This document shows, piece after piece, positions 7,019 through 59,323 of a DNA stretch of 64,000 bases; position 1 is the stretch's first letter, and the number at the start of each line of letters is the position of its first letter. Below the pieces are notes generated by a model that was given only the letters and a program-made list of their open reading frames with translations, was not told the DNA's origin and did not search any database. Position numbers and translations under genes: made by a program. This DNA is from Algibacter amylolyticus (GTDB lineage Bacteria > Bacteroidota > Bacteroidia > Flavobacteriales > Flavobacteriaceae), in NCBI RefSeq assembly GCF_014202225.1, contig NZ_JACHGE010000006.1, positions 124,001-188,000 on the forward strand. Direction: 5' to 3'.

Positions 7019-7066
7019 ACAATTTATAGTATTTACTATTATTCTCTATCCTGTACTAGTGGCTTT
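7019..7066 (-). promoter_or_regulatory. Shared PUL promoter: TATCCTGTAC repeat and weak -7 box
   Basis: TATCCTGTAC at 7047-7056, read on the plus strand as at the other sites, lies upstream of the DUF1080 gene. The second 10-bp copy is weak (TAGTGGCTTT). Twenty bases nearer the gene is TAAATTGT (minus strand of 7019-7026), a poor match to TAnnTTTG. Confidence 0.6.
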
Positions 7067-7153
7067 TATTTATTAAAAAATAACATGTACCCCCGAAAAT
7101 AAAGGATAGCATACTAAATCCTTACAATGTAATTTTGAAAAAAATGGTTAAAA

Positions 7154-7187
7154 AAAAGAATCATAAACTAATGTATATGATTCTTTT
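7154..7187 (-). terminator. Terminator of the NCS1 transporter gene
   Basis: Perfect 12-bp stem AAAAGAATCATA (7154-7165) with TATGATTCTTTT (7176-7187), T-run on the minus strand, about 28 bases past the transporter stop. Confidence 0.85.
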
Positions 7188-7214
7188 ATATAATTATTTA
7201 AGTGTTTTGTACAC

Positions 7215-8624
7215 TTATTGTTTTTGAGAATATTTACTTAAAACTAAAAATAAAATACCACATAATAACCAAGCAGGAAGTGTTACAAAAGATAAAAACA
7301 CATCAAATTGAATGGATATAAAATAAAACACCCCAAAGCTTATGGCCCATGCCCAAAACACAGACTTATTAAATGAAAGATTAGCTACTTCTGCATAATT
7401 CTTGATAATACCCGCCTTTTTATGGAAGAAGTGTTCAAAAACTATAATTGCACCAAAAGGAGCCAATATAAAACCGTATAAAGCCACAAAGCCTAATAAT
7501 TTCATTGCAAAAGCCGGAAACAACCCTGCAATTGTAGCAATAGAACCTGCCAAAATAGTCACTTTAGCCGTTGAAAGCTTTGGTAAAATAGCCTGAAATG
7601 CTAAACCTGCTCTATAAATTGTTGGGTTTGCGGTAGTCCATCCTGCAAGTACTACTGCAATAATTCCAAACACTCCTATAGCGTTATAGGCCATAGGACC
7701 TGGAGCCACTGGTGGTGCAGAGTTAGTTGATAAAAATGCTTGTGCTTCGGGAGATTTTAAATAAACTGCATATAACAATGCGGCGGCTATCCACGCCATA
7801 TAATGACCTACATACATTCCTGCAGCTGTTGCCCAACCTGCTTTAGCTTTTTTAGCAAACCTAAACACAGATAAATCGGACATACCAATATGCATGGCGC
7901 CATTAGCAAACCAAGACCAAATAACAACATGCCAAAATGTAAATTTTGTTTGTCCCGGAAAAGGCTCTCCACCGTCTCCCCAAATGTTCCAAAAGTCTGA
8001 AAAACTATCCACTCCTAGTTGACCAAGAGCAACTATACCACAGGTAACAAAAGCTAGTACAATTACAGGAGACATCCAGTTTGCTGCTTTTGTAACCGTA
8101 TCGTAACCTCTGGCTGCAATTACAGATATAACCGCACCTATTATTATAACTATAATAACCCACGTCATTCCATTAGGAAGCGTATCATCTAACTTAGGCA
8201 TTGGCATATCAAAAGGAATACCAACTGCCGTTGCAGAAACGGTTATCATAGATCCAGCTAAAAAACAAAATAATATACCATTAGCAAGATTATAGCCCGT
8301 TACCAACTTTTTACCACAAATTTTTTCTAATTGAAAGTATAGTGTTAATCTGTTTTTAACAGCGATTTCCGCTGTTAAAAATCTCCAACTTAAAACCGCT
8401 AAAAGGTTTCCAATTAATAACCCAATAATTAAATCGAAGGCACTAACCCCAGCAGTTAAAAAAAGAGGCCCAATCATAAATTCTGTACCTGCAGCATGCT
8501 CGCCAGCATACATACCTATAAAACTTTTCCAGCCTTTTAGTTTAGATTGTGGTACAGGAGTTCTTTCAAATTCTCCTCCCGAAGCTTCTTGTAAAATGTC
8601 TTCTTCTTGATGATATTGCGTCAT
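7215..8624 (-). CDS. NCS1-family (cytosine permease-like) membrane transporter
   Basis: 469 residues with about twelve hydrophobic segments. The N-terminal stretch GWKSFIGMYAGEHAAGTEFMIGPLF and the repeated Gly/Ala-rich helices match the nucleobase:cation symporter-1 family (cytosine/purine/hydantoin permeases). No nucleobase metabolism gene is nearby. It stands between the keto-sugar pair and the lactaldehyde/lactate genes, and has its own copy of the shared promoter at 8689-8736. This context suggests a substrate from the same pathway, such as rhamnose, a uronate product or lactate. No RhaT-like or FucP-like permease is seen in the window, so this protein could fill that gap. The family is clear; the substrate is a guess. 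Confidence 0.85.
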   Translation of the reverse strand: MTQYHQEEDILQEASGGEFERTPVPQSKLKGWKSFIGMYAGEHAAGTEFMIGPLFLTAGVSAFDLIIGLLIGNLLAVLSWRFLTAEIAVKNRLTLYFQLEKICGKKLVTGYNLANGILFCFLAGSMITVSATAVGIPFDMPMPKLDDTLPNGMTWVIIVIIIGAVISVIAARGYDTVTKAANWMSPVIVLAFVTCGIVALGQLGVDSFSDFWNIWGDGGEPFPGQTKFTFWHVVIWSWFANGAMHIGMSDLSVFRFAKKAKAGWATAAGMYVGHYMAWIAAALLYAVYLKSPEAQAFLSTNSAPPVAPGPMAYNAIGVFGIIAVVLAGWTTANPTIYRAGLAFQAILPKLSTAKVTILAGSIATIAGLFPAFAMKLLGFVALYGFILAPFGAIIVFEHFFHKKAGIIKNYAEVANLSFNKSVFWAWAISFGVFYFISIQFDVFLSFVTLPAWLLCGILFLVLSKYSQKQ

Positions 8625-8688
8625 AATTGCGGTTTAGTTTAGTTTTTTTAATAATTAACTTTTTAATAAAGTTACTAAATTATACTCA

Positions 8689-8736
8689 CGAAAATATACT
8701 GTACAAATTATAACTCTATCCTGTACTGTGCCGTAA
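8689..8736 (-). promoter_or_regulatory. Shared PUL promoter of the NCS1 transporter
   Basis: Direct repeats TATCCTGTAC (8717-8726) and TGTGCCGTAA (8727-8736), a 20-bp spacer, then TATTTTCG (minus strand of 8689-8696), one mismatch from TAnnTTTG. It lies between the terminator of the upstream aldehyde dehydrogenase gene and the transporter start, so the transporter has its own promoter. Confidence 0.8.
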
Positions 8737-8751
8737 TAAAATACCATAAAA

Positions 8752-8782
8752 AAAACTCAGCCAAAATTTAGCTGAGTTTTTT
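8752..8782 (-). terminator. Terminator of the rhamnose catabolic operon
   Basis: Stem AAAACTCAGC (8752-8761) with GCTGAGTTTT (8771-8780), loop CAAAATTTA, T-run on the minus strand, about 25 bases after the aldehyde dehydrogenase stop. Confidence 0.85.
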
Positions 8783-8806
8783 ACAATTACTTTAAAAATA
8801 TATTAT

Positions 8807-10246
8807 TTAATAGTATTGCGCATAAACTACGCGAGTATGCAAGTACTCTTCCATACCATGTTTGCCATCTGCTCCACCTATTCCAGATTTTTTCCAACCA
8901 GCATGAAAACCTTGAATGGCTTCAAAATGTTCTCTATTTACATAAGTTTCACCAAAATGCAGTCCATTTGTTGCACGCATAATGTTATTATAATTTTCAG
9001 AAAATATAGAAGATGTAAGTCCAAATTGGCAATCGTTTGATAATGCAATGGCTTCATCTAATGTACCAAACTTCATGACCGGCAAAACAGGTCCGAATAC
9101 TTCTTCTTGAATAATCTCCATGTTTTGAGACACATTCGTTAAAAGTGTTGGTTTGTAGAAATACCCTTTATCGAATTTCTCGTCGCGTTTTCCTCCTACC
9201 AAAACTTCTGCGCCTTCTTTTTTAGCAAATTCTACCATTTCAGAAATTTTATCTATTTGAGATTTAGATACTAGGCTACTCATATCTGCATTAGTTCCTG
9301 TTAAAGCATCCTCTACTGTTACTTGACTCATTTTTTTAGTCAATTTATCGACAAACTCATCATAAATACGGTCTTCCACATAAACGCGCTCTGCACAGTT
9401 ACAAACCTGTCCGCTAAAAATAACTTTAGACGCCACTATGGCATTTACAGCTAAATCTATATTGGCATCAGCACAAACAATTGCAGGAGCTTTTCCTCCT
9501 AATTCTAAAGAAACCTTAGTAATGTTTTCGGCCGCGGCACTAATAATTTGTTGGCCAGCACCCACGCTACCTGTTAAACTAATAATACCTGTAATAGCAC
9601 TTTTTGATAACGCATTACCCACAGTTCTACCCGATCCACAAACAAAATTTAAAACGCCCGCAGGCAAATCTATTTTTTGAATTAATTCTGCAAATTCCAT
9701 AACGGTATTAGGAGCCTCAGAACTAGGTTTAATAACGCAAGTATTTCCCGTTATAAGAGACGCGGCAACCTTTCTAGCCATTACGAAAAACGGAAAATTC
9801 CATGGGCAAATACCAACAGCCACACCAATTGGGACTTTATGAAGGTAAATGTGTTCATTTTCTCGATCACTTTGAATAATTTCACCTTCAATACGTCTTG
9901 CCCAACCCGCATTATAATCAAAATAATCGGCTGTTACATCAATTTCAACTTGTGCTAACCCAATAACTTTAGCTTGTTCTTTAGATAATGTTTCTGCTAA
10001 AAACACTCTGTTTTCTCTAATAACATCTGCCATTTTATGTAAAAAGGCCGCTCTTTTAATTGCTGGTAAAGCTTCCCATCCCGGTTGAGCTTTTTGTGCT
10101 GATTCTAAGGCATGATTAGCATCTTCCACAGTACCTGTAGAGATAGTACTAATAATTTCTTCTGTACACGGATTAAGTATTTCAATAACCGATGTGGCAT
10201 TGGAAGCTATAAACTGCCCGTTTATATACTGTTTATAATGTTTCAT
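8807..10246 (-). CDS. aldA: Aldehyde dehydrogenase, probable L-lactaldehyde dehydrogenase
   Basis: 479-residue NAD-dependent aldehyde dehydrogenase of normal length. Visible motifs: PWNFPFF (148-154), KPSSEAP (173-179), ELGGKAP with the general base E248, and GQVCNCAERV with the catalytic Cys at 282. Length and motifs resemble the AldA lactaldehyde/glycolaldehyde group. Last gene of the rhamnose run, downstream of the L-lactate dehydrogenase gene. In the pathway it would turn L-lactaldehyde, released by rhamnulose-1-phosphate cleavage, into L-lactate. RhaEW carries its own dehydrogenase domain, so this enzyme is either redundant or acts on another aldehyde. Family certain, substrate inferred. 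Confidence 0.85.
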   Translation of the reverse strand: MKHYKQYINGQFIASNATSVIEILNPCTEEIISTISTGTVEDANHALESAQKAQPGWEALPAIKRAAFLHKMADVIRENRVFLAETLSKEQAKVIGLAQVEIDVTADYFDYNAGWARRIEGEIIQSDRENEHIYLHKVPIGVAVGICPWNFPFFVMARKVAASLITGNTCVIKPSSEAPNTVMEFAELIQKIDLPAGVLNFVCGSGRTVGNALSKSAITGIISLTGSVGAGQQIISAAAENITKVSLELGGKAPAIVCADANIDLAVNAIVASKVIFSGQVCNCAERVYVEDRIYDEFVDKLTKKMSQVTVEDALTGTNADMSSLVSKSQIDKISEMVEFAKKEGAEVLVGGKRDEKFDKGYFYKPTLLTNVSQNMEIIQEEVFGPVLPVMKFGTLDEAIALSNDCQFGLTSSIFSENYNNIMRATNGLHFGETYVNREHFEAIQGFHAGWKKSGIGGADGKHGMEEYLHTRVVYAQYY

Positions 10247-10287
10247 AAGGTTTAAATAGGATTAATTTATATTTAAAAAAAGTCAAT

Positions 10288-10306
10288 AGTATTGCCGTAC
10301 AATACT
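10288..10306. promoter_or_regulatory. Palindrome AGTATTG-CCGTA-CAATACT between lldD and aldA
   Basis: A perfect 7-bp inverted repeat around CCGTA, 40-60 bases upstream of the aldehyde dehydrogenase start. Its centre (TTGCCGTAC) resembles the second half of the shared promoter repeat (TGTGCCGTAA). It could be an operator of the GntR-type regulator; this is a guess from symmetry and position. Confidence 0.35.
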
Positions 10307-15744: not shown

Positions 15745-17850
15745 TTATCTAACAAATGCATTTGCCATTCCTCCATCTACATTAATAATGTTTCCTGTAG
15801 ATTTATCTAAAATACCAACTAAAGTAAATACACCATTAGCAATATCGTCTGGCGTAATAATTTCATTTAACAAGTTTCTTTTAGCATAAAATGCTGGCAA
15901 CTCATCAACAGTAATGCCGTTTGCTTTAGCACGACCTTCTGCCCAAGCACCTTCCCAAATTTTACTTCCAACAATAACACCATCTGGGTTTACGGTATTC
16001 ACTCTAATTTTATCTTTTGCTAATTCTGCTGCTAATAAACGTACCATGTGCTGTTGCGCCGCTTTAGCTGTTCCGTAAGCCACGTTATTTGGACCCGCAA
16101 CTAAACCATTTTTACTTGCTATAGAAATGTAGTTTCCACCCAAGCCTTGCTTACGCATAATGACCGCAGATTGTTTTGCTAAATCGAACTGTCCTTTAAC
16201 TAAAATATTTTGTAAAATGTTCCAATCTTTATCGGTAGTATCTTCTAAAGGTTTCGAAATTGCTAATCCTGCACTGTGTACAATAATATCTACACCTCCA
16301 AATTCAACGCAAGCCTTTTTATAAGCCGAGGCAATTGATTCTGTACTAGTAACATCGCAAATAGCATAAGTAGACACGTCTCTTTTGTAAGTAGCGTGTG
16401 CTTCTTTTAAACTATCTTCATTAATATCTGTAAGAACTACATTGGCACCTTCGGCAGCTAATTTATCTGCAATAGCTTTACCAATACCTCCTCCGGCACC
16501 AGTAACAAATGCTACCTTACGAGATAATGGTTGTTCTTTTGGCATACGTTGTAGCTTAGCTTCTTCCAATAACCAATACTCAATATCGAAGGCCTCTTGT
16601 CTTGGTAACGATGTGTACTCGGTAATAGCTTCTGCACCACGCATTACATTAATAGCATTAATATAAAACTCGTTTGCAACACGCGTAGTTTGCTTGTTTT
16701 TAGCAAAACTAAACATACCAACTCCTGGGTAAATTATAATAACAGGGTTTGCATCACGCATAGCAGGACTATTTGCTTTTTTACAAGTATTATAGTAATC
16801 CGCATACTCTTTTCTGTAAGCTTCAAAAGCAGGTTCTAATTTCTTTAAAACAGCATCTGTATCTGTTAAATCTTCATTTTTATCTAAATCTAATACTAAT
16901 GGCTGGATTTTTGTTCTTAAGAAATGATCTGGACAAGATGTTCCCATAGGAGCTAAACGCTCTAAATCGTTACTATTAATGTATTCCATTACCACATCGG
17001 TATCAGAGAAATGCCCTATCATTCTATTTTCAGAAGAACATAACCCTCTTAATAAAGGCATAATTTGAGCCGCTTTATCTAAACGCTCTTCTTTTGGTAA
17101 ACTTTCTATTTTTTGTCCGCCAAAAACAGAACCTTTTTCTTTAATTTTCTTTTCTATAAACTCAGAAGCCATTTCAATAACCTCTAAACTATTCATATAA
17201 CATTCAAAAGAAGTGTCTCCCCAAGTAAATAAACCATGAGAACCTAAAACGATACCTCTAATACCAGGATTATCTGCTAAACATTTTTCTATTTGAAGTC
17301 CTAAATCGAACCCTGGACGTTGCCAAGGCACCCATCCCATAGTATCACCCCAAATTTCTTTGGTTACTTTTTCGCTATCTTTTGCTGCAGCCACGGCAAT
17401 AAGTGCATCTGGATGTAGGTGATCAATGTGTGCAAATGGTAATAAACCATGTAACGGCGTATCAATTGATGGTGCTTTACTATCTAAATCAAAAATACAG
17501 TGATTGAATAATCCAACCATACGATCTTCATCTTCTAAACCGCCGTAAACATTTTTTAAATCACGTAATCGTTTTGTATAAATGCCTGCAATACCACTTC
17601 TATTTAAAGTTCCTATGTCTCCACCAGAACCTTTAATCCACATCACTTCAACATCTTCATTTGTAAGAGGGTCTTTTTCTATGGTTCTACAACTTGTATT
17701 CCCACCGCCGTAATTTGTAATTCTTAAATCTGCTCCTAAGATATTTGAACGATATAAAAATAAATCTACTTGATTATCTCCAAACTCAGCTGCCTTTTTA
17801 TCGTCCCATAAATAATCGACGTATTTAAAACTCTTAGTAATTTCTTTCAT
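15745..17850 (-). CDS. rhaEW: Bifunctional rhamnulose-1-phosphate aldolase / short-chain dehydrogenase
   Basis: 701 residues in two parts. The N-terminal half (about 1-430) is a class II aldolase with LRITNYGGGNTSCR near residue 40, the zinc-site HIDHLHPDA near 142 and GSHGLFTWGD near 204. The C-terminal part (about 445-700) is a Rossmann short-chain dehydrogenase with VTGAGGGIGKA and the YGTAK active-site pair. This fusion is the known RhaEW type: the aldolase cuts rhamnulose-1-phosphate to dihydroxyacetone phosphate and L-lactaldehyde, and the dehydrogenase oxidises the lactaldehyde. First gene of the rhamnose operon, preceded by one of the clearest copies of the shared promoter (17880-17927). 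Confidence 0.92.
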   Translation of the reverse strand: MKEITKSFKYVDYLWDDKKAAEFGDNQVDLFLYRSNILGADLRITNYGGGNTSCRTIEKDPLTNEDVEVMWIKGSGGDIGTLNRSGIAGIYTKRLRDLKNVYGGLEDEDRMVGLFNHCIFDLDSKAPSIDTPLHGLLPFAHIDHLHPDALIAVAAAKDSEKVTKEIWGDTMGWVPWQRPGFDLGLQIEKCLADNPGIRGIVLGSHGLFTWGDTSFECYMNSLEVIEMASEFIEKKIKEKGSVFGGQKIESLPKEERLDKAAQIMPLLRGLCSSENRMIGHFSDTDVVMEYINSNDLERLAPMGTSCPDHFLRTKIQPLVLDLDKNEDLTDTDAVLKKLEPAFEAYRKEYADYYNTCKKANSPAMRDANPVIIIYPGVGMFSFAKNKQTTRVANEFYINAINVMRGAEAITEYTSLPRQEAFDIEYWLLEEAKLQRMPKEQPLSRKVAFVTGAGGGIGKAIADKLAAEGANVVLTDINEDSLKEAHATYKRDVSTYAICDVTSTESIASAYKKACVEFGGVDIIVHSAGLAISKPLEDTTDKDWNILQNILVKGQFDLAKQSAVIMRKQGLGGNYISIASKNGLVAGPNNVAYGTAKAAQQHMVRLLAAELAKDKIRVNTVNPDGVIVGSKIWEGAWAEGRAKANGITVDELPAFYAKRNLLNEIITPDDIANGVFTLVGILDKSTGNIINVDGGMANAFVR

Positions 17851-17879: not shown

Positions 17880-17927
17880 CAAAAATATATCCCTAAATAA
17901 ACTTTTGTATCCTGTACTGTACCGTAA
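17880..17927 (-). promoter_or_regulatory. Shared PUL promoter of the rhamnose operon
   Basis: Direct repeats TATCCTGTAC (17908-17917) and TGTACCGTAA (17918-17927), exactly 20 bp, then TATTTTTG (minus strand of 17880-17887), a perfect Bacteroidetes -7 box TAnnTTTG. Transcription should begin near 17872, about 20 bases before the rhaEW start. Confidence 0.85.
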
Positions 17928-18120: not shown

Positions 18121-18168
18121 TGTCAGGATACCGCAGGATTCTTTTCCTTAATACAGCTAGTACTTTTG
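18121..18168 (+). promoter_or_regulatory. Shared PUL promoter of fbp, on the opposite strand
   Basis: TGTCAGGATA (18121-18130) and CCGCAGGATT (18131-18140) are the reverse-complement form of the repeat, 10 bp apart. After exactly 20 bp comes TACTTTTG (18161-18168), a perfect TAnnTTTG box, about 60 bases before the fbp start. The same geometry as the minus-strand copies, but facing right. Confidence 0.8.
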
Positions 18169-18229: not shown

Positions 18230-19240
18230 ATGGATACAAAACACACAACACTAGGAGAATTTATTATTGACAACCAAAAACATTTTAAATACTCGTCGGG
18301 AGAACTTTCTAGATTAATAAACTCCATTCGATTAGCTGCAAAAATTGTAAATCATGAAGTTAACAAAGCAGGTTTAGTAGATATTTTAGGAGCCGCTGGA
18401 GAAACCAATATACAAGGAGAAGACCAACAAAAACTTGATGTTTATGCAAACGAAGTGTTTAAATCGGCATTAATAAACAGAGAAATTGTATGCGGTATTG
18501 CAAGTGAAGAAGAAGAAGATTTTATTACCGTACAAGGTAAATATAATGCCCACGATAATAAATATGTTGTTTTGATTGATCCTTTAGATGGCTCTTCAAA
18601 TATTGATGTTAATGTTTCTGTAGGCACTATCTTTTCAATATACCGAAGAACTACACCCCTAGGAATGCCCGTAAAAAAAGAGGATTTTTTACAAAAAGGT
18701 AAGGAGCAAGTCGCCGCTGGTTATATTGTTTATGGCACTTCAACTATGCTCGTATATACAGCTGGTTATGGTGTAAATGGTTTTACCCTTAACCCAGCGA
18801 TTGGAAGCTTTTATTTATCGCATCCGGATATGAAATTTCCTGAAACCGGAAATATTTTCTCTATTAATGAAGGAAACTATGCCCAATTTTCTCAAGGTGT
18901 TAAAGATTACATTAAATATTGTCAAGCTGAAGAAGACGATAGGCCTTATACCTTTAGATATATAGGATCTATGGTATCAGATTTTCATAGAAACATGATA
19001 AAAGGCGGTATTTATATTTATCCTGCTAGTACCAAAGCACCAAAAGGGAAATTACGATTATTATATGAATGTAATCCCATAGCTTTTTTAACAGAACAAG
19101 CTGGTGGTAAAGCCACCGATGGATTTAATAGAATAATGGATATTCAACCTACCGAATTGCACGAAAGAGTCCCTATATTTTGTGGTAGTACTAAAATGGT
19201 TGAAAAAGCCGAATTGTTTATGAAGTTAAATAAAGAATAA
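18230..19240 (+). CDS. fbp: Class I fructose-1,6-bisphosphatase
   Basis: 336 residues, normal length for class I FBPase. Metal and substrate motifs seen: GEEDQQKLD-like segment (62-71), SEEEED (92-97), the signature DPLDGSSN (117-124), [14 protein letters not shown] and [11 protein letters not shown]. It removes the C1 phosphate of fructose-1,6-bisphosphate, the key step of gluconeogenesis. Cells living on rhamnose and uronic acids gain carbon as triose phosphate and pyruvate, so placing fbp here makes metabolic sense. It is transcribed away from rhaEW and has its own copy of the shared promoter. Function certain; regulation by the PUL regulator is inferred. Confidence 0.95.
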
Positions 19241-19355: not shown

Positions 19356-20402
19356 ATGGATCTAATAAAATTCATAAAAATAGACGAAAACTCAAGGGTT
19401 CCAAAATACCAACAAATTATAGATTCTATAATTGATAACATCTCTTTAGGTAATTTAACAATGGACCAAAAGATTCCTTCTATAAATATGTTTAGTGAGG
19501 AGTTTTACCTTTCTAGAGATACGGTTGAGAAAGCATATAGTATTTTAAAGAAAAGAAACATTATTACCTCTATTCGTGGTAAAGGCTACTATATTTCTAG
19601 AACTAAATTAATATCGAAAGTCAACATACTATTTTTAATTAATAAATTAAGCTCTTATAAACTAAGAACCTACAATCATTTTATTGACGCCATTGGAGGC
19701 AATTCGCATACCGATTTACATATTTATCATTGCGATGAATCGTTGTTTTTAAACCTATTGGATAAAAATAAATCGGCTTACGATTATTTTGTAATTATGC
19801 CTCATTTTAAAACCGAAGATTTAAAACATATTAGCTTAACGGATAATGTTACTAAGGCTCTTAAAAAAATACCTGAAGATAAACTAGTAATTCTAGATAA
19901 TAAAAAACCTAACATAAATGGAAGTTCAGTAGAAATCTACCAAGATTTTGAAAATGATATATATTTTGCTTTAAAGGAAGCTTTACCTAAAATAAAAAAA
20001 TATAAAAAAATCATGCTAATCTATCCTGAAAAGGCAGTTTATCCTTACCCAAGGCGAATTTTACACGGTTTTAGAAAATTTTGCGTGGAACATAAACTTG
20101 ATTTTGAAATTCTAGAGAAGGTTTATGACGATATGATTTTGAAAAAAGGCGATTTATTTATAACTATTGAAGAAGCCGACTTAGTAAACCTGGTTAAGCA
20201 AGTGCGCGAAGACGAATTTAGATTAGGTAGTGATATTGGTATTATATCCTACAATGACACACCATTAAAGGAACTTTTGGGCATTACGGTAATATCTACA
20301 GATTTTAAAGTAATGGGAGAAACCGCCGCCACCATGATTTTAAATAAGCAGAAGGGAAAAGTAAAAGTACCTTTTAATTTTATTGATAGAGATTCTTTGT
20401 AA
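19356..20402 (+). CDS. GntR-family regulator with LacI-like sensor domain
   Basis: 348 residues. An N-terminal winged helix of the GntR type (about 1-80: VPKYQQIIDSIIDNI, FSEEFYLSRDTVEKAYSIL, RGKGYYI) is joined to a periplasmic-binding-protein-like domain (about 85-345) of the LacI/GalR sensor kind (VNILFLIN, IGIISYNDTPLKELLGITVIS). Proteins of this build control sugar catabolic genes in Bacteroidetes. It follows fbp by 115 bases and converges on the lyase gene. The most likely ligand is rhamnose or a rhamnose metabolite, and the most likely targets are the rha genes. It is the second possible reader of the repeat sites. No shared-type promoter precedes it. Confidence 0.85.
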   Translation: MDLIKFIKIDENSRVPKYQQIIDSIIDNISLGNLTMDQKIPSINMFSEEFYLSRDTVEKAYSILKKRNIITSIRGKGYYISRTKLISKVNILFLINKLSSYKLRTYNHFIDAIGGNSHTDLHIYHCDESLFLNLLDKNKSAYDYFVIMPHFKTEDLKHISLTDNVTKALKKIPEDKLVILDNKKPNINGSSVEIYQDFENDIYFALKEALPKIKKYKKIMLIYPEKAVYPYPRRILHGFRKFCVEHKLDFEILEKVYDDMILKKGDLFITIEEADLVNLVKQVREDEFRLGSDIGIISYNDTPLKELLGITVISTDFKVMGETAATMILNKQKGKVKVPFNFIDRDSL

Positions 20403-42648: not shown

Positions 42649-42696
42649 CTAAAGTCCAAATTTTCATTAAATAAACTATCCTGTACTGTCTCGAAT
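42649..42696 (-). promoter_or_regulatory. Shared PUL regulatory repeat before the GH78 pair
   Basis: TATCCTGTAC (42677-42686) followed by TGTCTCGAAT (42687-42696). The position 20 bp nearer the gene reads GACTTTAG, a poor match to the -7 box, so this is the least certain promoter of the set although the repeat itself is exact. Confidence 0.6.
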
Positions 42697-42804: not shown

Positions 42805-45246
42805 TTACTTAATTATAAGTTTAGAACGGAAAACTCTTTGATTATCGTCAATTACTGTAATTAAATATAATCCCGATTTAAAACGGCCATTATTTTCAAT
42901 ATCCATTCTATTAGAATTTATTCTGTTTTGCAAAATGACCTTTCCTAGCATATCGTTTATTATAATGTTAGCCTTATTTACGCCATTAAATAAAATGGTG
43001 AATTGATGGTTTGCTGGATTAGGAAAAACCTTCGCCGAAAATGAATCCGTCTCCACCTTAGAAGTACTTAAGGTTGTGGATTCGACAATCCATTTAGACC
43101 TATCATCAGAATTCCCTATATGCTCTATTATACCACTCGTATTTTGGTACAAGTAATTAGCATTATTTCTGGTTAAAAATTGATATGTGCCGTCGCTACT
43201 ATTATAAGCGACATTAAATTGTTTATCGCTATCCTCTCTAGGAGCTGAAAAACCAGTATTAATAATATCGTTTGGTGGATTACCAGCAGCTCTTAAAATA
43301 CCACGATCGGACCTTTTACTTTCAATATTAAAATAATTTCCAGCTTTTACAAATTCCCATTCCTTATCGCCAGCAGCCACGTTGGAAGCATTATCACTTT
43401 CAACAACATCGGCACCTACAGAATGTAAATATTTTCCAGTTACAAAATTCTTAATTCGGTAAATATCGCCGGTTAAATCTGTAGGATCTTCTTCTTCAAC
43501 ATTAATTGTAATTTTATTAGAAGACACTGTTTCGTTACTTGCATTGTATGCCACTGCTTGCACCGTATATATACCTTCTGTATTTGGCAACCAATCTATA
43601 GCATAAGGCACTGAACTATCCTCGCCAAAAGTAGCACCATTAACTAAAAACTCTACTTTAGAAATACTTCCATTTTCATCTATGGCATCAGCCGAAATTT
43701 GAACTGTTTCACCAAGGCTATACGTTTCATCTGGAAAAGGAGAGGTTAACGACACTCTAAAAGGATCCTTTACAATATCTAAATCTATAATTTGTAAATA
43801 AAGAGGTTGCTCATTACCAGAGGTTCTATGCATTAAATAATAATACAATTTACCATTAGCAATATATACTTGCCCATGATTAAAAACTTTACCAGAAGTT
43901 GCTTGATATACTCTAGTAAAATTATTAGTACCACCTTGGGCTTTTTCTACATAAACCCTTCCGTTAGTTAAACCAATTATAAATACATCATCGCCTGCTG
44001 TGTATATGGCTTCTGCTCCTGCAAAATCCTCTGAAGTTATAAAATCTGTTGCTCCAGAAGGTTTATAAGTATGTAAATACTTGGTTACATTAAATTGATT
44101 GTCTCTAACTCTACTTATAATATGCACATCCTCATTTTCGGTAACTGTCCAATCAAAATCTTGAACAATATTTATGGCGTCTGTATTGGTTCCTTGAACG
44201 TAATCTCCGGGCTCCATGACTTTTATAAACTCGGCATCGTATAAGGGAAGACTAAAACTTTGTCCTTGGTGGTTTTTCCATCCGGTAAAACCATCTTGAT
44301 CATCGGAGTAGGCATAATACACCCCATTTTGATATTGATATTTATCGCTGTTATTTTGAGACCTTTTTTGAAAACCAATACGCATTTTACCATTAACATA
44401 TTTTATATCGCCATAAAGCCCCCAGTTATAGGTTATTCCAGATTGGCTTCTAGCATTTAAAACATTAAAATGCGTAAAACTAGACCATGTAGATGTGGTA
44501 GCTTCATATTTAGAAAATTTATAAGCTCCGTTATTATTGCCACCTTCACGCATATACATAAACAAATCACCCGAATCATTTAAGAAAAATTTAGGATAGG
44601 TTAAAGCCGAAAAATTACTATAATCTTCACCACCGTTTAAACTTAAATGCTTGTATCCGCCGTTATTATTTTGAACAAATTTATCTAAGGTAAATTCTGC
44701 ATCTGGAAGCTCAGCAGCATTTGCTATGGAAAATGAATATCTAAAATAATCGTTACTTAAACTACCATCTGAAGGTCTTGTATTGCTGTACGAATGCATA
44801 TCGTATAACAAATGAATGGTACCGTTTAAAGGACTTACTCCAACAGCTATGGTGTTATGAGATTCTCCTATCCACCATTTATTCTGATAGCCCGTATGTC
44901 TATGAGGAAATTCAATAGTTGCCATAGTACCAGTTATGGTATTATAACGTGTAAGCATAACATTTCGCTGGCCTTTGCCTCCTTTATACCACGTTGTAAA
45001 AACAAATTCGTTATAGCTTGTTATACAGTCGCCATGTGCTGATATTTTATTTCCAAAAAAATAATCGTAGGGTGCAGATTCACCTGTATTAGTTGCACCA
45101 CTTGAAACTTTAGAACCATCAAAATGCAAACCAATATCGGAAATCTTAACTTCGCTTTCTAAGACTACTTGAGCATGCCCTAAAAAGCATAGGATCAGAA
45201 CAATAAAGTGTATACAACATTGCTTTTTTGAGTAATTATTTTTCAT
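42805..45246 (-). CDS. Secreted BNR-propeller protein, probable ulvan-type lyase (PL24/PL25-like), with T9SS sorting domain
   Basis: 813 residues, signal peptide (about 1-25). The main domain (about 28-490) is a BNR_4-type beta-propeller: GNKISAHGDCI, VFTTWYKGG, FPHRHTGY (His115), GESHNTIAVGVS (His130) and GTIHLLYDMHSYS. Ulvan lyase families PL24 and PL25 are seven-bladed propellers, and these conserved His/Tyr segments are what one expects of them. Then an Ig-like domain (about 500-585), a ricin-like beta-trefoil segment (about 595-715) and a C-terminal type IX secretion sorting domain (FPNPANHQF to SKLIIK). It should act outside the cell or on the surface as the first attacker of the polymer. 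It has its own shared promoter and terminator, so it is a single-gene unit. Confidence 0.8.
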   Translation of the reverse strand: MKNNYSKKQCCIHFIVLILCFLGHAQVVLESEVKISDIGLHFDGSKVSSGATNTGESAPYDYFFGNKISAHGDCITSYNEFVFTTWYKGGKGQRNVMLTRYNTITGTMATIEFPHRHTGYQNKWWIGESHNTIAVGVSPLNGTIHLLYDMHSYSNTRPSDGSLSNDYFRYSFSIANAAELPDAEFTLDKFVQNNNGGYKHLSLNGGEDYSNFSALTYPKFFLNDSGDLFMYMREGGNNNGAYKFSKYEATTSTWSSFTHFNVLNARSQSGITYNWGLYGDIKYVNGKMRIGFQKRSQNNSDKYQYQNGVYYAYSDDQDGFTGWKNHQGQSFSLPLYDAEFIKVMEPGDYVQGTNTDAINIVQDFDWTVTENEDVHIISRVRDNQFNVTKYLHTYKPSGATDFITSEDFAGAEAIYTAGDDVFIIGLTNGRVYVEKAQGGTNNFTRVYQATSGKVFNHGQVYIANGKLYYYLMHRTSGNEQPLYLQIIDLDIVKDPFRVSLTSPFPDETYSLGETVQISADAIDENGSISKVEFLVNGATFGEDSSVPYAIDWLPNTEGIYTVQAVAYNASNETVSSNKITINVEEEDPTDLTGDIYRIKNFVTGKYLHSVGADVVESDNASNVAAGDKEWEFVKAGNYFNIESKRSDRGILRAAGNPPNDIINTGFSAPREDSDKQFNVAYNSSDGTYQFLTRNNANYLYQNTSGIIEHIGNSDDRSKWIVESTTLSTSKVETDSFSAKVFPNPANHQFTILFNGVNKANIIINDMLGKVILQNRINSNRMDIENNGRFKSGLYLITVIDDNQRVFRSKLIIK

Positions 45247-45300: not shown

Positions 45301-45348
45301 CAAATTTCTGATTTTAAAAAAAAAGAAGCATCCTGCACTATACTGCTA
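45301..45348 (-). promoter_or_regulatory. Shared PUL promoter of the BNR-type lyase
   Basis: Direct repeats CATCCTGCAC (45329-45338) and TATACTGCTA (45339-45348), 20 bp, then GAAATTTG (minus strand of 45301-45308): the TTTG is in place but the TA is not. Confidence 0.65.
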
Positions 45349-48220: not shown

Positions 48221-48919
48221 TTACATAGGAGAATAGTTGATATCTTTTGTTAGAATAAATTTATCAAATTCGAAGCCATCTTCACGCATGCTAAATTGAA
48301 TATCGTGAATTCCCGCAGTTTCAAAATCTAAATAAATTTCATTAGGCACACCACAATGCACTTCTTTTGTTCTTTGTTTGCTCGCCCAAGTCCACTTATT
48401 TTTCCCTTCGCACCATTGCATTTTTTGCCCATGTAGCGGCCAAGTATTATTTATACCTACATGAATTCCATTATCTTCACTTCCTGTAGAAAAGGCCCTA
48501 ACCCAAACATAATACCGTCCTGATGAATTTATTTTTACCTGATAATGTACAATGCCCAATACACCAGGTTTGTCAGAAAAATTATCACCGCAAACGAGCT
48601 TATCAGCATGTGTAATCCTTGTATCTGGTAATATTTCGATGTAAGATTGATTGCTGGCATTATTACTATGTTCTGTATCTTGGTAGTTGTCTACACTAGG
48701 AACTTCTGCAGTCGATACTCTAAACCACTGCCTAATCTGAGACTTACTTTGCTTATAAAAATGCTCTGCCTCAACCGCTACAAAACCATTTTTTTCTTCA
48801 AAGAGAATGGTATCATCAAAAATGGCTTGATTTAATTTAGCAGATTGAGCTATCAATGCGAAGCAAGATATGGAAATCAACAAGAATAGTAACAAAAATG
48901 ATTTTGTATTCACAAACAT
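48221..48919 (-). CDS. Secreted stand-alone beta-sandwich protein (GH115 C-terminal-like)
   Basis: 232 residues, signal peptide (about 1-25). The opening NGFVAVEAEHFYKQ (44-57), the middle YYVWVRAF and the end HDIQFSMREDGFEFDKFIL match the C-terminal domain of GH115 glucuronidases and related carbohydrate-binding sandwiches, here without any catalytic domain. It is the first gene after a shared promoter (48938-48985). It may be a small secreted or surface glycan-binding protein. Role inferred from fold resemblance only. Confidence 0.6.
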   Translation of the reverse strand: MFVNTKSFLLLFLLISISCFALIAQSAKLNQAIFDDTILFEEKNGFVAVEAEHFYKQSKSQIRQWFRVSTAEVPSVDNYQDTEHSNNASNQSYIEILPDTRITHADKLVCGDNFSDKPGVLGIVHYQVKINSSGRYYVWVRAFSTGSEDNGIHVGINNTWPLHGQKMQWCEGKNKWTWASKQRTKEVHCGVPNEIYLDFETAGIHDIQFSMREDGFEFDKFILTKDINYSPM

Positions 48920-48937: not shown

Positions 48938-48985
48938 TAAAAATACCCAATCATTTAGCACAAACTATCCTGTAGTATCCTTAGG
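48938..48985 (-). promoter_or_regulatory. Shared PUL promoter before the GH115-C-like gene
   Basis: Direct repeats TATCCTGTAG (48966-48975) and TATCCTTAGG (48976-48985), 20 bp, then TATTTTTA (minus strand of 48938-48945), one mismatch from TAnnTTTG. The second repeat is unusually good here. The gene starts about 20 bases further on. Confidence 0.8.
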
Positions 48986-53030: not shown

Positions 53031-54425
53031 CTATTCAAAATTTCTTAAACCTGGAACAATTTTCAGCTCTATTTCATCCTTGCTTTCAGGCCACTTTAAT
53101 ACAATTAACTTCTGGGTATTAGAATCCCAAATAAAATTTGTTGGATCGATACCTTTCGCTAATTTATAAATTTCGAGACCAACATTTTTTAAAGGATTAT
53201 AGTATAAAACTGAATGATTGCCTATTAAAACAGAAAAGCCATCTGGATAATGTCTATTGGCACCAATAAATATTTTGGATGCGCCTTTACTATTATCGGG
53301 TTTTAATTTAATATCTAAATTTCGTGTAGCATGATTGAATAAAAAGGATTGAATATCTCCTGCAATAACCTGCGGAAAAGGTCGTGATATTACATCTGTA
53401 ATATACTTGCGCTCTACGGTACCTGCATCGGTGCTATCGCTAAAAATAGACCATGTTGAAGGACCGCCAGGTAAAAAGTGTTGCATGGTACGATTACCTA
53501 AAAACCAAGCTTTAATTGAGCCCACACCCATCCTATCGAATACCTCTGCGGTTCGTATATAAAGCTCTCTATACTTTAATTGCCCAAGTTTACCATCTAT
53601 AATGGTATCGGTTGTTGCAAAGGTAGGGAAACCCCATTCCCCTATAAGAATTGGAGCATTTAGCATGTCTGATTCTTTATCAAAACGATCCATATTTCGC
53701 TTTATATAGTTAATATCATTTTGATATATATGCGGCGCAAAAATGATGTTCTTTCTTTTTATTGGTGCTGTTATTTCAGAATATTGGTTATTGTCAATTT
53801 TCTCCCCTTTATTCATGAAGATAGACTGAAATAACGTCATTTTATCCGCATTTATTTTTTGACTTTCATCTATAATCTTTTGATATAGTGGAATGAGATA
53901 TTTATTAGTTAGTTTTTCATAAGAAATATCCATGGTTAACTTTCTAGGTTCGTTTACCACATCGTAACCTAATACCGAAGATTCCTCTGAATATCGATTC
54001 CATATCACTTTCCATGCATCAATATAGGTTTCATATTCATTCTTTTTGTTTTGCCAAAACTCTTCCCAAATAAATTTATCGACTCCATAAACCGTCATTT
54101 TAAAAATGGTTTTAATACCATGGTTTCTACCTAGTGCTACCAAATTGTCTAGTTTATTCAAATACGTTGGATCTAATTTACCTCCTGGAAAATGACTTAG
54201 CTTACCTAGTTCTAATCGTATTACTTGAAAGTTAGCCCCCATTCTAACCATTCGTGCATAGTCATCGCTATTAAAAAACACTTCGCCTTTATGGTCGTTT
54301 GTATTAACCACAAAACCTCTGGGTATAACATGACGCCCCTGTGCGTCTCTTAAACCATGTTTTATCTGACCAAAAGTTGTAAAATAAGTGAATAAAAATA
54401 CTCCTAATATAATTTGGAATTTCAT
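53031..54425 (-). CDS. GH5-like glycoside hydrolase
   Basis: 464 residues with signal peptide (about 1-20). Cellulase-fold TIM barrel: RGFVVNTNDH near 36, DVVNEPRK with acid/base Glu159 and ILIGEWGFP with nucleophile Glu263, about 100 residues apart as in GH5. The opening segment (GLRDAQGRHVIPRGF) and the C-terminal beta-sandwich (about 365-460, PDGFSVLIGNHSVLYY) recall endoglycoceramidase-type GH5 proteins. It heads a unit with GH3 and a sulfatase, under a shared promoter at 54451-54498. Its target in this locus is unclear. Confidence 0.78.
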   Translation of the reverse strand: MKFQIILGVFLFTYFTTFGQIKHGLRDAQGRHVIPRGFVVNTNDHKGEVFFNSDDYARMVRMGANFQVIRLELGKLSHFPGGKLDPTYLNKLDNLVALGRNHGIKTIFKMTVYGVDKFIWEEFWQNKKNEYETYIDAWKVIWNRYSEESSVLGYDVVNEPRKLTMDISYEKLTNKYLIPLYQKIIDESQKINADKMTLFQSIFMNKGEKIDNNQYSEITAPIKRKNIIFAPHIYQNDINYIKRNMDRFDKESDMLNAPILIGEWGFPTFATTDTIIDGKLGQLKYRELYIRTAEVFDRMGVGSIKAWFLGNRTMQHFLPGGPSTWSIFSDSTDAGTVERKYITDVISRPFPQVIAGDIQSFLFNHATRNLDIKLKPDNSKGASKIFIGANRHYPDGFSVLIGNHSVLYYNPLKNVGLEIYKLAKGIDPTNFIWDSNTQKLIVLKWPESKDEIELKIVPGLRNFE

Positions 54426-54450: not shown

Positions 54451-54498
54451 GCAAGATAAATTTTGAATACTTAATTAGTACCCTGTACTGTGCTGTAT
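54451..54498 (-). promoter_or_regulatory. Shared PUL promoter of the GH5-like unit
   Basis: Direct repeats TACCCTGTAC (54479-54488) and TGTGCTGTAT (54489-54498), 20 bp, then TATCTTGC (minus strand of 54451-54458), an imperfect -7 box. The gene starts about 25 bases further on. Confidence 0.75.
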
Positions 54499-56172: not shown

Positions 56173-56184
56173 TTGTTTGTATTT

Positions 56185-59100
56185 TTAAAATGTTACGTTT
56201 AATCCAAGAGTTAATACTCGAGGGTTAGGATAAGACCCATCATTATAGCCTTGAGCAATATTTCCTAGGCCACTTCGTCCAAAATTACTTGCTTCTGGAT
56301 CAATTAACCTGAAATCAGAGAATAACAACAAGTTACTACCGGAGAAATACACGGTTGCATTTTTAAAGCTATTAAGTCCCATTTTATCCACAGGAAGGTT
56401 ATAGGCTAACCTTAACGTTTTTAAACGTAGGTGCGATCCATCTTCAACATACTCTGAGTTAGGAGGTGTTCCTGTAACAGAATCTGCTCCGGCTCTTGGT
56501 ATATTAGATGTTGGATTTTCTGGCGTCCATCGATTTGCCAAATCAGCAAATTTTGTAGTTTCACCTCTATTGAAGAAATGGTTACGTGTTCTTAAATTGT
56601 ACACTTCGTTACCAACCGTTCCTTGAAAATAGAATGAAAACTCCCAATTTTTGTATGAAAATGAATTCTCGAACCCAAAAATTAAATCTGGTAACGGGCT
56701 TCCTAGTACAACGGCATCTTCATTTGATATAATGTTGTCTCCATTTACATCTTGAAATTTAGAACCACCAACAACTTGAGGATCTGTTAATCCAGATGCA
56801 TCTATCTCTTCTTGACTTTTCCATGTACCTAAAAATGGTACACCTGTAAATACAGGAACAGACTCGCCAACTATTAAACGTGTGTTACCTGACCCTAGAA
56901 TAGCATCGACTGTAACATCAATAAAATCTACTCCTCCAAGATCTAGTATTTTATTTTTGTTAGATGATAATGTTAAAGTAGAATTCCAGTTAAAATCTTG
57001 ATTACTAATATTGGTTGAGTTTACTAAAAACTCCCAACCTTTATTTTCTAATGAACCAACATTTTGTAGTTGGCTTGTAAAACCTGTTTGTCTAGGTATG
57101 GTTACATCCAACAACAAATCATTAGTTTTCTTGTAATAATAATTTAATTCAGTAAAAACTCTACCTCCAAATAAAGAAGCTTCTAATGCAATATCTAAGG
57201 AATTAGTTGTTTCCCATATTAAATTAGGGTTTGATGGTCTTCCTAAAGTTAATCCTGGTTGCTCTAAACCATTAATTGTAGTATTAGCTTCTACTAAAAT
57301 ACCTTTAGTTCTATATGGTTCTATGGCCTGATTACCCGATTTACCATAACTAGCTCTTAACTTTAAATCTTGAAAAACCGATTGATCTTGCATAAATGAT
57401 TCTTCCGAAATTTTCCAAGCTCCTGCTATAGAAGGGTAAAATTCATACTTATTACCTTCAGCAAAAACCGAACTACCATCGGTTCTTCCTACCAAGGTTA
57501 AAAGGTATTTATCTTTAAATGAATAATTTAATCTTCCGAAAAAAGAAGCTATTTGAAAACCTGTAAAATCACTGGAAACGACGCTTCTAGTTGGATCGGA
57601 AAAACCTAAGTTGTTAAAACCTGTAGCATCACTAGTTATACCAAAAGCTTCTGCCTGAGCTATTTCCGTAGTTACTTTCTGAAAAGATGCACCAGCAAGT
57701 GCCGTTAAACTATGGTTCTCTCCAAAATCTGATTGATATTGAACGGTATTTTCATTATTCCAACCCGAACTTGCCACCGTTCTTACACTAGCATTCCCCA
57801 AATCATTTACAATAAGTAAATGAGGACTTTGACTAGATGTAAACCTGTTTTGTTTTGTGTTGTTAAACTCCGGACTAAATGTAGAACGAATTATCCAATT
57901 TGGTGCTGGCTTATATTCTAAATATAGCGATGCTAATAAATTATTGGTAAATGTTTCGTTTGTATTTAAAGCTATATTAGCTATTGGGTTTGACCATGGC
58001 GAACCTATAACTTCATCAAATCCATTATACGTGCCATCCTCATTATAAATAGGTTGCGTACGAAGCGTTGCAAATGCATTACCAAAACTAGCGTTTCCAT
58101 TATCTTGTTCTATTCTAGAATAATTAACTCTAAACCCTGTTTTTACCTTATCGCTTAATTTATAATCTAAGTTTGATCTAAATATATATTTTTCAATACC
58201 TGTACTTTTTACCAATCCATCTTGGTTAAAGTAGTTTAATGAAGTGTAATAATTTAAGTTATCTGTTGCTCCGGAAATAGACACATCTGCATTATAAATT
58301 GGCGATGGATCTAAGAGTATATCGAACCAATCATTATCAGGATATGTTGAAGGATCGTTTGGAAAAGGTTCTGCTGCCGACCTAAATCTTGCACTCTCAT
58401 TTGTAAACTCAATTTGTTCTGCTTGAGAAAGCATATCGGGTAATTCTGGGACTAATTGCATGCTAGTGTATAAATTTACACTTACCTGTGGTTTACCTGC
58501 ACCTGCGCCCGTGCCATTTTTAGTACTTACCAATACAACACCATTTGCACCTCTAGAACCATATATGGCAATAGAAGATGCATCTTTTAAAATTTCAATA
58601 GATTTAATATCATTACTGTTAATGTTATTTAAGTTAAAATTGGTACCAACAACAATACCATCAATAACCCAAAGTGGTTCATTACTACCAGTAATAGAGT
58701 TACCACCTCTTACTCTAATAACAGTACCAGCGCCAGGAGCTCCACTAGTTTGTGTTACCTGAACACCAGAAGCACGACCTTGTAATGCTTGATCGACTCT
58801 AGATACGGGAACTGCAGTTAGGTCTTCTGAACTCACAGAAGAAACCGACCCGGTTAAATCCGATTTTCTCTGTGTTCCATAACCAATAACAACAACTTCG
58901 TCTAGTGCATTATCTTGCTGTAATGTGATATTAAAATTAGTTTGGTTTCCTACAAGTATTTCTTTGGTTAGGTAGCCAACATAAGAAATAACGAGTGTAC
59001 TTTGCGCATCTGCATCAATAGTAAAATCACCATCAAAATCTGTACTTGTTCCTTTTGAAGTTCCTTTTAATAAAACAGTTGCTCCAGGAAGCGGTTGTCC

Positions 59101-59226
59101 ATCTGCCGAAACTGTTCCTGTTACAGTTTGGGCATTTAGCATAGCCATACTAGACCATGCCAAAATAAGACATATAAAAGTTTTATTAAAACTTAAACAC
59201 GTGCTTAATTTAATTTTTAAATTCAT
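56185..59226 (-). CDS. susC: SusC-like TonB-dependent outer-membrane transporter
   Basis: 1013 residues. Signal peptide (about 1-32), a carboxypeptidase-regulatory-like domain (34-110, GTVSADGQPLPGATVLLKG), a TonB box region (EVVVIGYGTQ near 111), plug domain (about 118-235, VIRVRGGNS, LWVIDGIVVG, IEILKDASSIAIYGSRGANGV) and a long beta-barrel ending in LNVTF with a terminal aromatic residue. It imports oligosaccharides across the outer membrane with energy from TonB. First gene of susCD, under a promoter with four regulatory repeats, twice the number seen elsewhere. Confidence 0.96.
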   Translation of the reverse strand: MNLKIKLSTCLSFNKTFICLILAWSSMAMLNAQTVTGTVSADGQPLPGATVLLKGTSKGTSTDFDGDFTIDADAQSTLVISYVGYLTKEILVGNQTNFNITLQQDNALDEVVVIGYGTQRKSDLTGSVSSVSSEDLTAVPVSRVDQALQGRASGVQVTQTSGAPGAGTVIRVRGGNSITGSNEPLWVIDGIVVGTNFNLNNINSNDIKSIEILKDASSIAIYGSRGANGVVLVSTKNGTGAGAGKPQVSVNLYTSMQLVPELPDMLSQAEQIEFTNESARFRSAAEPFPNDPSTYPDNDWFDILLDPSPIYNADVSISGATDNLNYYTSLNYFNQDGLVKSTGIEKYIFRSNLDYKLSDKVKTGFRVNYSRIEQDNGNASFGNAFATLRTQPIYNEDGTYNGFDEVIGSPWSNPIANIALNTNETFTNNLLASLYLEYKPAPNWIIRSTFSPEFNNTKQNRFTSSQSPHLLIVNDLGNASVRTVASSGWNNENTVQYQSDFGENHSLTALAGASFQKVTTEIAQAEAFGITSDATGFNNLGFSDPTRSVVSSDFTGFQIASFFGRLNYSFKDKYLLTLVGRTDGSSVFAEGNKYEFYPSIAGAWKISEESFMQDQSVFQDLKLRASYGKSGNQAIEPYRTKGILVEANTTINGLEQPGLTLGRPSNPNLIWETTNSLDIALEASLFGGRVFTELNYYYKKTNDLLLDVTIPRQTGFTSQLQNVGSLENKGWEFLVNSTNISNQDFNWNSTLTLSSNKNKILDLGGVDFIDVTVDAILGSGNTRLIVGESVPVFTGVPFLGTWKSQEEIDASGLTDPQVVGGSKFQDVNGDNIISNEDAVVLGSPLPDLIFGFENSFSYKNWEFSFYFQGTVGNEVYNLRTRNHFFNRGETTKFADLANRWTPENPTSNIPRAGADSVTGTPPNSEYVEDGSHLRLKTLRLAYNLPVDKMGLNSFKNATVYFSGSNLLLFSDFRLIDPEASNFGRSGLGNIAQGYNDGSYPNPRVLTLGLNVTF

Positions 59227-59255
59227 AAAGTTTTAGTTAATTTGTTATACAAAGT

Positions 59256-59323
59256 CTAAATTATTATGAATTAAGACAGGAACCATCCTGTTGCATCCTT
59301 TGGTGTCCTGCACTATCCTGTTT
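59256..59323 (-). promoter_or_regulatory. susC promoter with four in-register 10-bp repeats
   Basis: CATCCTGTTG (59284-59293), CATCCTTTGG (59294-59303), TGTCCTGCAC (59304-59313) and TATCCTGTTT (59314-59323) follow one another without gap. Twenty bp nearer the gene is TAATTTAG (minus strand of 59256-59263), one mismatch from TAnnTTTG. The gene starts 30 bases on. Confidence 0.85.

What the first reader, a model, noticed from the sequence alone, without database searches (positions are those of the whole stretch)
7019..59323. One promoter architecture shared by ten units: 10-bp direct repeats exactly 20 bp from a TAnnTTTG box
The sequence YATCCTGYAC followed in register by a second, weaker 10-bp copy (TRTNCYGTAA-like) occurs before DUF1080 (7047), NCS1 (8717), rhaEW (17908), fbp (18121, opposite strand), GH2 (32888), GH78 (42677), the BNR lyase (45329), the GH115-C-like gene (48966), GH5 (54479) and susC (59284). 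In all but the GH78 copy a -7-like element lies exactly 20 bp closer to the gene. It is perfect TAnnTTTG at rhaEW, GH2 and fbp, one mismatch at NCS1, susC and 48938, and weaker at DUF1080, the BNR lyase and GH5. The repeat takes the place of the -33 region. A 10-bp period suits the two helix-turn-helix units of an AraC-type domain binding successive major grooves, so the hybrid regulator is the likely reader. The sites were seen directly; the regulator is inferred.
Basis: partly seen in the sequence, partly recalled or inferred. Interest (0 to 1): 0.85.

Follow-up and report, generated by a model that had tools for sequence, protein, structure and literature searches.

The report
Rhamnose-ulvan regulon read by GntR-type regulator
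A marine bacterium that eats the green-algal polysaccharide ulvan appears to control about eighteen sets of genes through one shared promoter design, and comparison of hundreds of genomes points to a rhamnose-type GntR regulator, not the hybrid sensor first proposed, as the protein that reads it.

Summary
At all ten named promoters the -7 core A..TT lies exactly 20 bp past the box. A matrix from those ten found eight more promoters beyond the window; a genome scan gives 18 sites at E<=0.0014, all in one ~110-kb ulvan/rhamnose cluster. Unit: nnnCAGGAYR, twice head-to-tail, 20 bp, TAnnTTTG.

The proposed reader is not supported. A close counterpart of the hybrid AraC regulator was found in 1 of 397 Flavobacteriaceae genomes, the motif in 89. 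The GntR-PBP protein at 19356-20402 tracks the motif: 75 genomes both, 14 motif only, 4 GntR only, 304 neither; those 4 also carry the box before rhaEW. Of 7 GntRs with a changed recognition helix (EK to V[RK]), 4 have CAGAAC and 1 CATAAC instead of CAGGAT at rhaEW; 2 show no pair. A galactose paralogue has its own repeat, CTAGTAG, in 17 of 17 loci.

Best reading: a GntR-type rhamnose/ulvan regulator binding 10-bp direct repeats over the -33 region. Activation is inferred from rigid spacing; repression is not excluded. No bench data.

The parts
7019..7066 (-). promoter site of DUF1080 gene 5619-6986 (weak distal unit; -7 TAAATTGT)
   Evidence: E 6.3e-4; weakest member, leave-one-out 4.2 bits
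8689..8736 (-). promoter site of NCS1-type symporter 7215-8624 (-7 TATTTTCG)
   Evidence: NCS1 weak match
17880..17927 (-). promoter site of rhaEW 15745-17850 (-7 TATTTTTG)
   Evidence: motif directly before rhaEW in 63 of 80 named loci
18121..18168 (+). promoter site of fbp, probably fbp-gntR (-7 TACTTTTG)
   Evidence: operon inferred from the 115-bp gap
18230..19240 (+). fbp, fructose-1,6-bisphosphatase
   Evidence: Pfam
19356..20402 (+). GntR winged-helix + LacI-type sensor (Peripla_BP_3): proposed reader of the repeats
   Evidence: Pfam; co-occurrence; box follows its recognition helix
32860..32907 (-). promoter site of GH2 gene 29707-32751 (-7 TATGTTTG)
42649..42696 (-). promoter site of GH78 gene 39799-42591 (-7 GACTTTAG)
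45301..45348 (-). promoter site of BNR/PLH30 ulvan-lyase-like gene 42805-45246 (-7 GAAATTTG)
48938..48985 (-). promoter site of GH115-C-like gene 48221-48919 (-7 TATTTTTA)
54451..54498 (-). promoter site of GH5 gene 53031-54425 (-7 TATCTTGC)
59256..59323 (-). promoter site of susC 56185-59226 with four tandem 10-bp units (-7 TAATTTAG)
263..2035 (+). C-terminal part of the hybrid two-component regulator (HisKA, HATPase, receiver, AraC HTH): rejected as reader
   Evidence: full gene C6:121974-126035; no close counterpart in 396 other genomes

Best explanation
The repeats are binding sites of the GntR-type regulator encoded at 19356-20402, a GntR winged helix-turn-helix fused to a LacI-like sugar-sensing domain, the main reader of an ulvan/rhamnose regulon. 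Shown by sequence: two head-to-tail 10-bp units, one helical turn apart, end exactly 20 bp before the -7 box and sit where a -33 element would be; motif presence and box sequence follow the GntR. Inferred: a dimer lays its two DNA-binding heads on the same face of the helix as direct repeats; with a rhamnose-pathway ligand bound it recruits sigma-A polymerase to promoters with a good -7 but no -33 element; fbp-gntR gives feedback. The confidence below is for GntR as reader plus the fixed-spacing promoter role, whichever sign.
For: Co-occurrence over 397 genomes: motif and close GntR (E<=1e-100) 75 both, 14 motif only, 4 GntR only, 304 neither; close AraC-cupin protein in 15 of 89 motif genomes, hybrid regulator in 1 of 89. 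By genus 58 both, 14 motif only, 0 GntR only, 165 neither. The 4 GntR-only genomes carry the repeat before rhaEW (read by eye). Not explained by rhaEW alone: of 94 genomes with rhaEW, 78 have a close GntR and 74 of these a model hit; 16 lack it and 1 of these has a hit. In 80 named loci chosen by GntR alone, 76 hold the motif, 158 hits against 1 in reversed sequence. Spacing: of 170 repeat-only hits, 132 have TAnnTTTG (<=1 mismatch) at exactly 20 bp, 73 perfect. Co-variation: of 7 GntRs with helix SRDT[VI]V[RK], 4 have CAGAAC (G108, G384, G222, G357) and 1 CATAAC (G307) before rhaEW, same 20 bp; SRDT[VI]EK proteins at 39-44% identity keep CAGGAT (G020) or CAGGAA (G064). Paralogue: GntR of the galactose operon has a CTAGTAG repeat next to it in 17 of 17 loci with its helix type and 0 of 3 others; in this genome CTAGTAG pair plus -7 matches there with 1 mismatch, the only other match has 3.
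Against: No binding or expression data. GntR dimers usually bind palindromes (PMC4494728). 14 genomes have a model hit without a close GntR, 13 with one hit each and one, 87% complete, with two; about 4 false genomes would be expected at E<=0.01. 4 of 80 named loci have no hit. 2 of 7 V[RK]-type loci (G037, G247) show no exact CAGAAC pair in the stretch fetched; there GntR is about 3.5 kb from rhaEW. In the galactose clade the spacing is looser: a -7 at exactly 20 bp in 7 of 17 loci (8 with the self-complementary L257), at 17-19 or 21 bp in 6, at 11 in 1, none in 2. Family-wide searches scored only a few candidates per genome (15 for the motif, 5 for GntR, 6 for AraC, 2 for the hybrid regulator), so counts are lower bounds. 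Fisher values ignore relatedness. A sigma-A promoter with fixed spacing could still be repressed.
Confidence: 0.82

Rival explanations
1. Same GntR protein, but a repressor: the repeats are an operator covering the -33 region, and a sugar ligand releases it.
For: GntR proteins are described as a large family of repressors (PMC4918961, abstract start in listing); B. theta FucR, a GntR sugar regulator (listed in PMC3878776), is recalled as a repressor. Six of 17 galactose-clade loci carry the better pair pointing away from the GntR gene and spacing there is loose, as for an operator.
Against: A repressor does not need the repeat exactly 20 bp from -7 in over a hundred promoters; 0 of 65 perfect-(-7) repeat promoters have TTG at gap 17-23, against 17 of 78 other promoters and 224 of 1545 coding matches, though the repeat itself fills part of that stretch and the control enrichment is weak.
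Confidence: 0.3
2. The hybrid two-component AraC regulator reads the repeats.
For: It lies at the edge of the cluster and has an AraC DNA-binding domain.
Against: Close counterpart in 1 of 397 genomes (2 candidates scored per genome), motif in 89; its facing GH88-susCD operon lacks the site; known HTCS motifs have about 21-bp spacing.
Confidence: 0.03
3. The AraC protein with a cupin sensor inside the cluster (C6:207064-207948, beyond the window) reads the repeats.
For: All 15 genomes with a close orthologue have at least 3 motif hits; its sugar-sensor domain fits.
Against: 74 of 89 motif genomes lack a close orthologue, including G265, G070, G268 and G045, whose fetched ulvan clusters are full of the motif and hold no AraC-type match.
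Confidence: 0.05
4. An unknown co-inherited factor, such as a special sigma or another activator, reads the repeats.
For: Fixed spacing to -7 would suit a sigma factor.
Against: The -7 box is the ordinary Bacteroidota TAnnTTTG (consensus recalled); box variants follow the GntR helix and the galactose paralogue has its own repeat; Pfam on all 62 ORFs of 150 aa or more in the stretch shows three transcription regulators, of which the GntR is the one that tracks the motif.
Confidence: 0.06

Closest known systems
AraR subfamily of GntR regulators (B. subtilis AraR)
   Same: GntR winged helix plus GalR/LacI-type sensor, sugar catabolism (PMC4494728 passages; DNA-binding domain match to 4egy, 33.7 bits)
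   Different: AraR is a Firmicutes repressor with bipartite operators (recalled); here 10-bp direct repeats at a fixed distance from -7
MocR regulators (GabR, PdxR, TauR)
   Same: GntR-type heads, many direct-repeat sites, activators of divergent operons (PMC5320631 passages)
   Different: Aminotransferase-like sensor domain; mixed repeat geometries
Rhamnose regulators of Rodionova 2013
   Same: Control rhaEW-type pathways; the DeoR-type ones have direct repeats with 10-11 bp period (PMC3870299 passages)
   Different: The twelve groups there are AraC, DeoR or LacI; the word GntR does not occur in that text
B. thetaiotaomicron ManR and FucR (GntR)
   Same: Bacteroidota GntR sugar regulators; ManR spans a monosaccharide pathway and a susCD locus (PMC3878776 passages)
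   Different: Their motif structure and domain layout were not seen here (supplements not available)
SARP/PhoB-type activators
   Same: Direct repeats replacing the -35 element next to -10 (recalled; only the start of the AfsR abstract was seen)
   Different: OmpR-type winged helix, 11-bp period, unrelated sensor (recalled)

Membership tests
GntR family, AraR-like layout | N-terminal GntR helix-turn-helix | tested here: met
   PF00392 1.2e-10, residues 17-80
GntR family, AraR-like layout | C-terminal LacI/PBP sugar sensor | tested here: met
   PF13377 5.2e-9; model pLDDT 88.7, best folds RbsR, LacI, CcpA
GntR family, AraR-like layout | Palindromic GT..AC operator | tested here: not met
   Direct repeat nnnCAGGAYR x2
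GntR family, AraR-like layout | Binds the sites | not testable with these tools
   Inferred from co-occurrence and co-variation
HTCS regulons | Direct repeat with about 21-bp centre distance | tested here: not met
   10-bp period; further units at -30 and -40 in only 12 and 11 of 176 sites at >=5/7
HTCS regulons | Regulator present where motif is | tested here: not met
   1 of 89 motif genomes
Bacteroidota sigma-A promoter | -7 TAnnTTTG | tested here: met
   132 of 170 at exactly 20 bp
Bacteroidota sigma-A promoter | -33 TTG element | tested here: not met
   0 of 65
Class II activator | Regulator needed for transcription | not testable with these tools
   Fixed spacing only

The most novel reading that the evidence does not exclude
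Flavobacteriaceae GntR-PBP regulators form a class of activators that bind 10-bp direct repeats in place of -33, about 20 bp from -7, with a readable code in which the two residues after SRDT[VI] go with the box: EK with CAGGAT, V[RK] with CAGAAC, [LMI][MTA] with CTAGTAG; one member turned a local rhamnose switch into master control of whole ulvan clusters.
Probability: 0.43. Interest if true: 0.75.

Novelty: new variant of a known kind. Interest (0 to 1): 0.62.

Why it matters
It gives marine flavobacteria a defined, computable ulvan/rhamnose regulon with a named regulator, so regulon members can be called from sequence alone. It would add a GntR type to the AraC, DeoR and LacI types of rhamnose regulators in PMC3870299. 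It suggests that a cytoplasmic sugar sensor, rather than the periplasmic hybrid sensor usually assumed, commands a large polysaccharide locus. It also offers a native part for rhamnose sensing; a recent ulvan biosensor borrowed E. coli RhaS (PMC12858550 passages).

Tried and rejected
Hybrid regulator as reader: rejected by distribution. AraC-cupin as reader: all 15 close-orthologue genomes have the motif, but 74 motif genomes lack it. The single box plus -7 as a search pattern: near chance. A generic repeat scan around EK-type GntRs was mostly uninformative because the distal unit is degenerate (15 of 112 against 6 of 112 in random sequence), and the blind scan of galactose loci also gave chance hits away from GntR (L247, L250). 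-33 control: other promoters show only weak TTG enrichment (17 of 78 against 224 of 1545 coding), so it is weak support for activation. On re-check a first reading by eye of the galactose spacing (9 of 17 at 20 bp) fell to 7 of 17 when scripted, and I lowered the novel-case odds from 0.45 to 0.43 for it.

Rows dropped: in the co-occurrence tables I used 15 of 18 AraC matches (three at 35-40% identity left out) and 79 of 122 GntR matches (E<=1e-100). One of 16 rhaEW genomes without close GntR (G298, 67% complete) was not fetched. The own-genome model search scored 150 of 6866 first-look candidates; the family search scored 15 per genome with stricter filters and recovered 15 of the 18 own sites.

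Papers: PMC3878776, PMC12125979, PMC3870299, PMC4494728, PMC5320631 and PMC12858550 were seen as passages (PMC4494728 also section 5); all others only in search listings. No title or abstract start in those listings describes this motif; the library is open-access only and the searches few.
Full report
What was checked. The window is C6:124001-188000 of a 4.35-Mb genome. The best named GntR relative is from Algibacter pectinivorans (95%). On the coding strand the motif is a degenerate distal unit followed by GTACAGGATA, then 20 bp, then TAnnTTTG. All ten sites align without gaps; A and TT of the -7 core are invariant at exactly 20 bp.

Out-of-sample test. A matrix of the ten window sites, run over the contig from C6:114001 to its end, recovered the ten and eight new promoters, all outside the window: C6:188132, 190070, 209902, 211607, 216245, 221230, 228887 and 240593. 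Each is intergenic, points at a gene and has a proximal CAGGA; seven of the eight also have CAGGA in the distal unit (188132 has CATGA). The genes are GH78, a T9SS protein, a 638-aa protein without Pfam match, PL28 ulvan lyase, a T9SS protein, GH43, a sulfatase-GH78 fusion and a SusC-like protein. Whole-genome scan with an 18-site model: the 18 training sites at E<=0.0014, all in this cluster; the next is C8:219630 at 0.048 (150 of 6866 first-look candidates scored).

Who reads it. Pfam on the 62 ORFs of 150 aa or more in C6:114001-242539 shows three transcription regulators: the hybrid regulator C6:121974-126035, the GntR-PBP protein in the window, and an AraC-cupin protein beyond the window (two ORFs were scanned in cut form). 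I searched the same 397 Flavobacteriaceae genomes for each and for the motif. Motif 89; hybrid regulator 1 at E<=1e-200; AraC-cupin 18, of which 15 close; GntR 122 at E<=1e-60, of which 79 close. Motif and close GntR: 75, 14, 4, 304 (both, motif only, GntR only, neither), Fisher 5e-61; all 55 genomes with three or more motif hits have the GntR. By genus: 58, 14, 0, 165. The 4 GntR-only genomes do carry the repeat before rhaEW. These values are not corrected for relatedness, and each search scored few candidates per genome.

Could the link be only that GntR sits next to rhaEW? rhaEW is in 94 genomes; 78 have a close GntR, 74 of these a model hit; 16 lack it, 1 of these has a hit. I read the rhaEW promoters of 15 of the 16 by eye. 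Five with a GntR of helix SRDT[VI]V[RK] have CAGAAC (four) or CATAAC (one) in place of CAGGAT, with the same 20 bp to a -7 box; the distal unit is a full CAGAAC in two of them and weaker in three. G020 and G064, whose GntRs keep EK, keep CAGGAT and CAGGAA. Two V[RK] genomes (G037, G247) show no pair in the stretch fetched. G024, with a distant GntR about 12 kb away, and five with no GntR match in the stretch (G291, G325, G249, G272, G327) show none. The variable residues are positions 42-43 of the GntR helix-turn-helix by my alignment to FadR; at 42 FadR and AraR have an Arg that contacts the DNA backbone (PMC4494728 section 5).

Paralogue test. Of ten Peripla_BP_3 matches in this genome, two are relatives of this GntR at E<=1e-60. 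The second, on C11, heads galM-galK-galT and faces a sodium symporter. A blind scan for any 10-bp repeat 20 bp before a -7 box found CTAGTAG-n3-CTAGTAG at its promoter and at several relatives'. Scripted over 20 fetched loci, a pair (each unit at least 5 of 7, together at least 11 of 14) lies within 400 bp of the GntR start at 17 of 17 loci with helix SRDTV[LMI][MTA]AF and 0 of 3 others. In six the better pair points away from gntR; in one (L257) the units are inverted. A -7 box lies at exactly 20 bp in 7 (8 with L257), at 17-19 or 21 in 6, at 11 in 1, and was not found in 2. So the repeat is shared, the exact spacing less so. In this genome the CTAGTAG design matches there with 1 mismatch; the only other match has 3, and the reversed control has 0.

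Named loci. 80 loci fetched by GntR similarity alone: 76 hold a hit above 18 bits, 158 hits, against 1 when the sequences are read backwards. Four have none (L145, L200, L207, L216). Of 158 hits 63 lie before rhaEW, then SusC (18), NCS1 (11), sulfatases (9), fbp (6) and others; 20 precede genes without a homologue in our cluster and 8 have no ORF nearby. With the repeat alone scored, the -7 box falls at exactly 20 bp in 132 of 170 hits, the next commonest distance being 18 bp with 17. Longer arrays are rare: unit at -30 in 12 of 176 and at -40 in 11 of 176 at >=5/7.

How it works. The regulator has a GntR head and a LacI-like sensor (predicted structure 88.7 pLDDT, closest folds RbsR, LacI, CcpA). 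The repeat abuts the -33 position, and none of 65 repeat promoters with a perfect -7 has a TTG there (weak support). A repressor would tolerate varied positions; rigid phasing points to contact with polymerase. I therefore favour activation, at about two to one. The ancestral target seems to be rhaEW, with ulvan genes recruited later; that is inference. The ligand, rhamnose or a close product, is inferred from the regulated pathway.

Place among known things. It works like MocR activators (direct repeats, GntR heads; PMC5320631) and has the AraR layout (PMC4494728), but the palindromic-operator feature of the GntR family was tested and not met. Rhamnose regulators surveyed in PMC3870299 are AraC, DeoR and LacI types. 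Hence: new variant of a known kind.

Noticed in passing
L032:1503-1547 (C8:219632, outside the window): A nineteenth candidate site (E 0.048) stands before a start that reads, by eye, like an FGGY sugar kinase, cut off by the end of the locus held.
   Followed up: partly
window 10288-10306: Upstream of the aldehyde dehydrogenase gene 8807-10246 lies a perfect inverted repeat AGTATTG-n5-CAATACT and no CAGGA repeat; its reader is unknown.
   Followed up: no
L009:7688-7973 (C6:121688-121973): The intergenic between the hybrid regulator and the divergent GH88-susC-susD operon has no CAGGA site but two similar CAAATATT-containing stretches that may be the hybrid regulator's own site.
   Followed up: no
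window 2569-3624: A tyrosine-recombinase-like gene with an Arm-DNA-binding domain at the edge of the cluster.
   Followed up: no
L044 and L045: The AraC-cupin protein is 100% identical in a genome of another genus (DNA 90.8% over 3.9 kb) while GntR is 84%; possible transfer of part of the cluster.
   Followed up: partly
C6:225300-228827 (L012:3300-6827): A single protein joins a sulfatase and a GH78 rhamnosidase.
   Followed up: no
L225:4854 and L227:1434: Two genomes with the V[RK] helix carry a further exact CAGAAC-n4-CAGAAC pair beside gntR.
   Followed up: no
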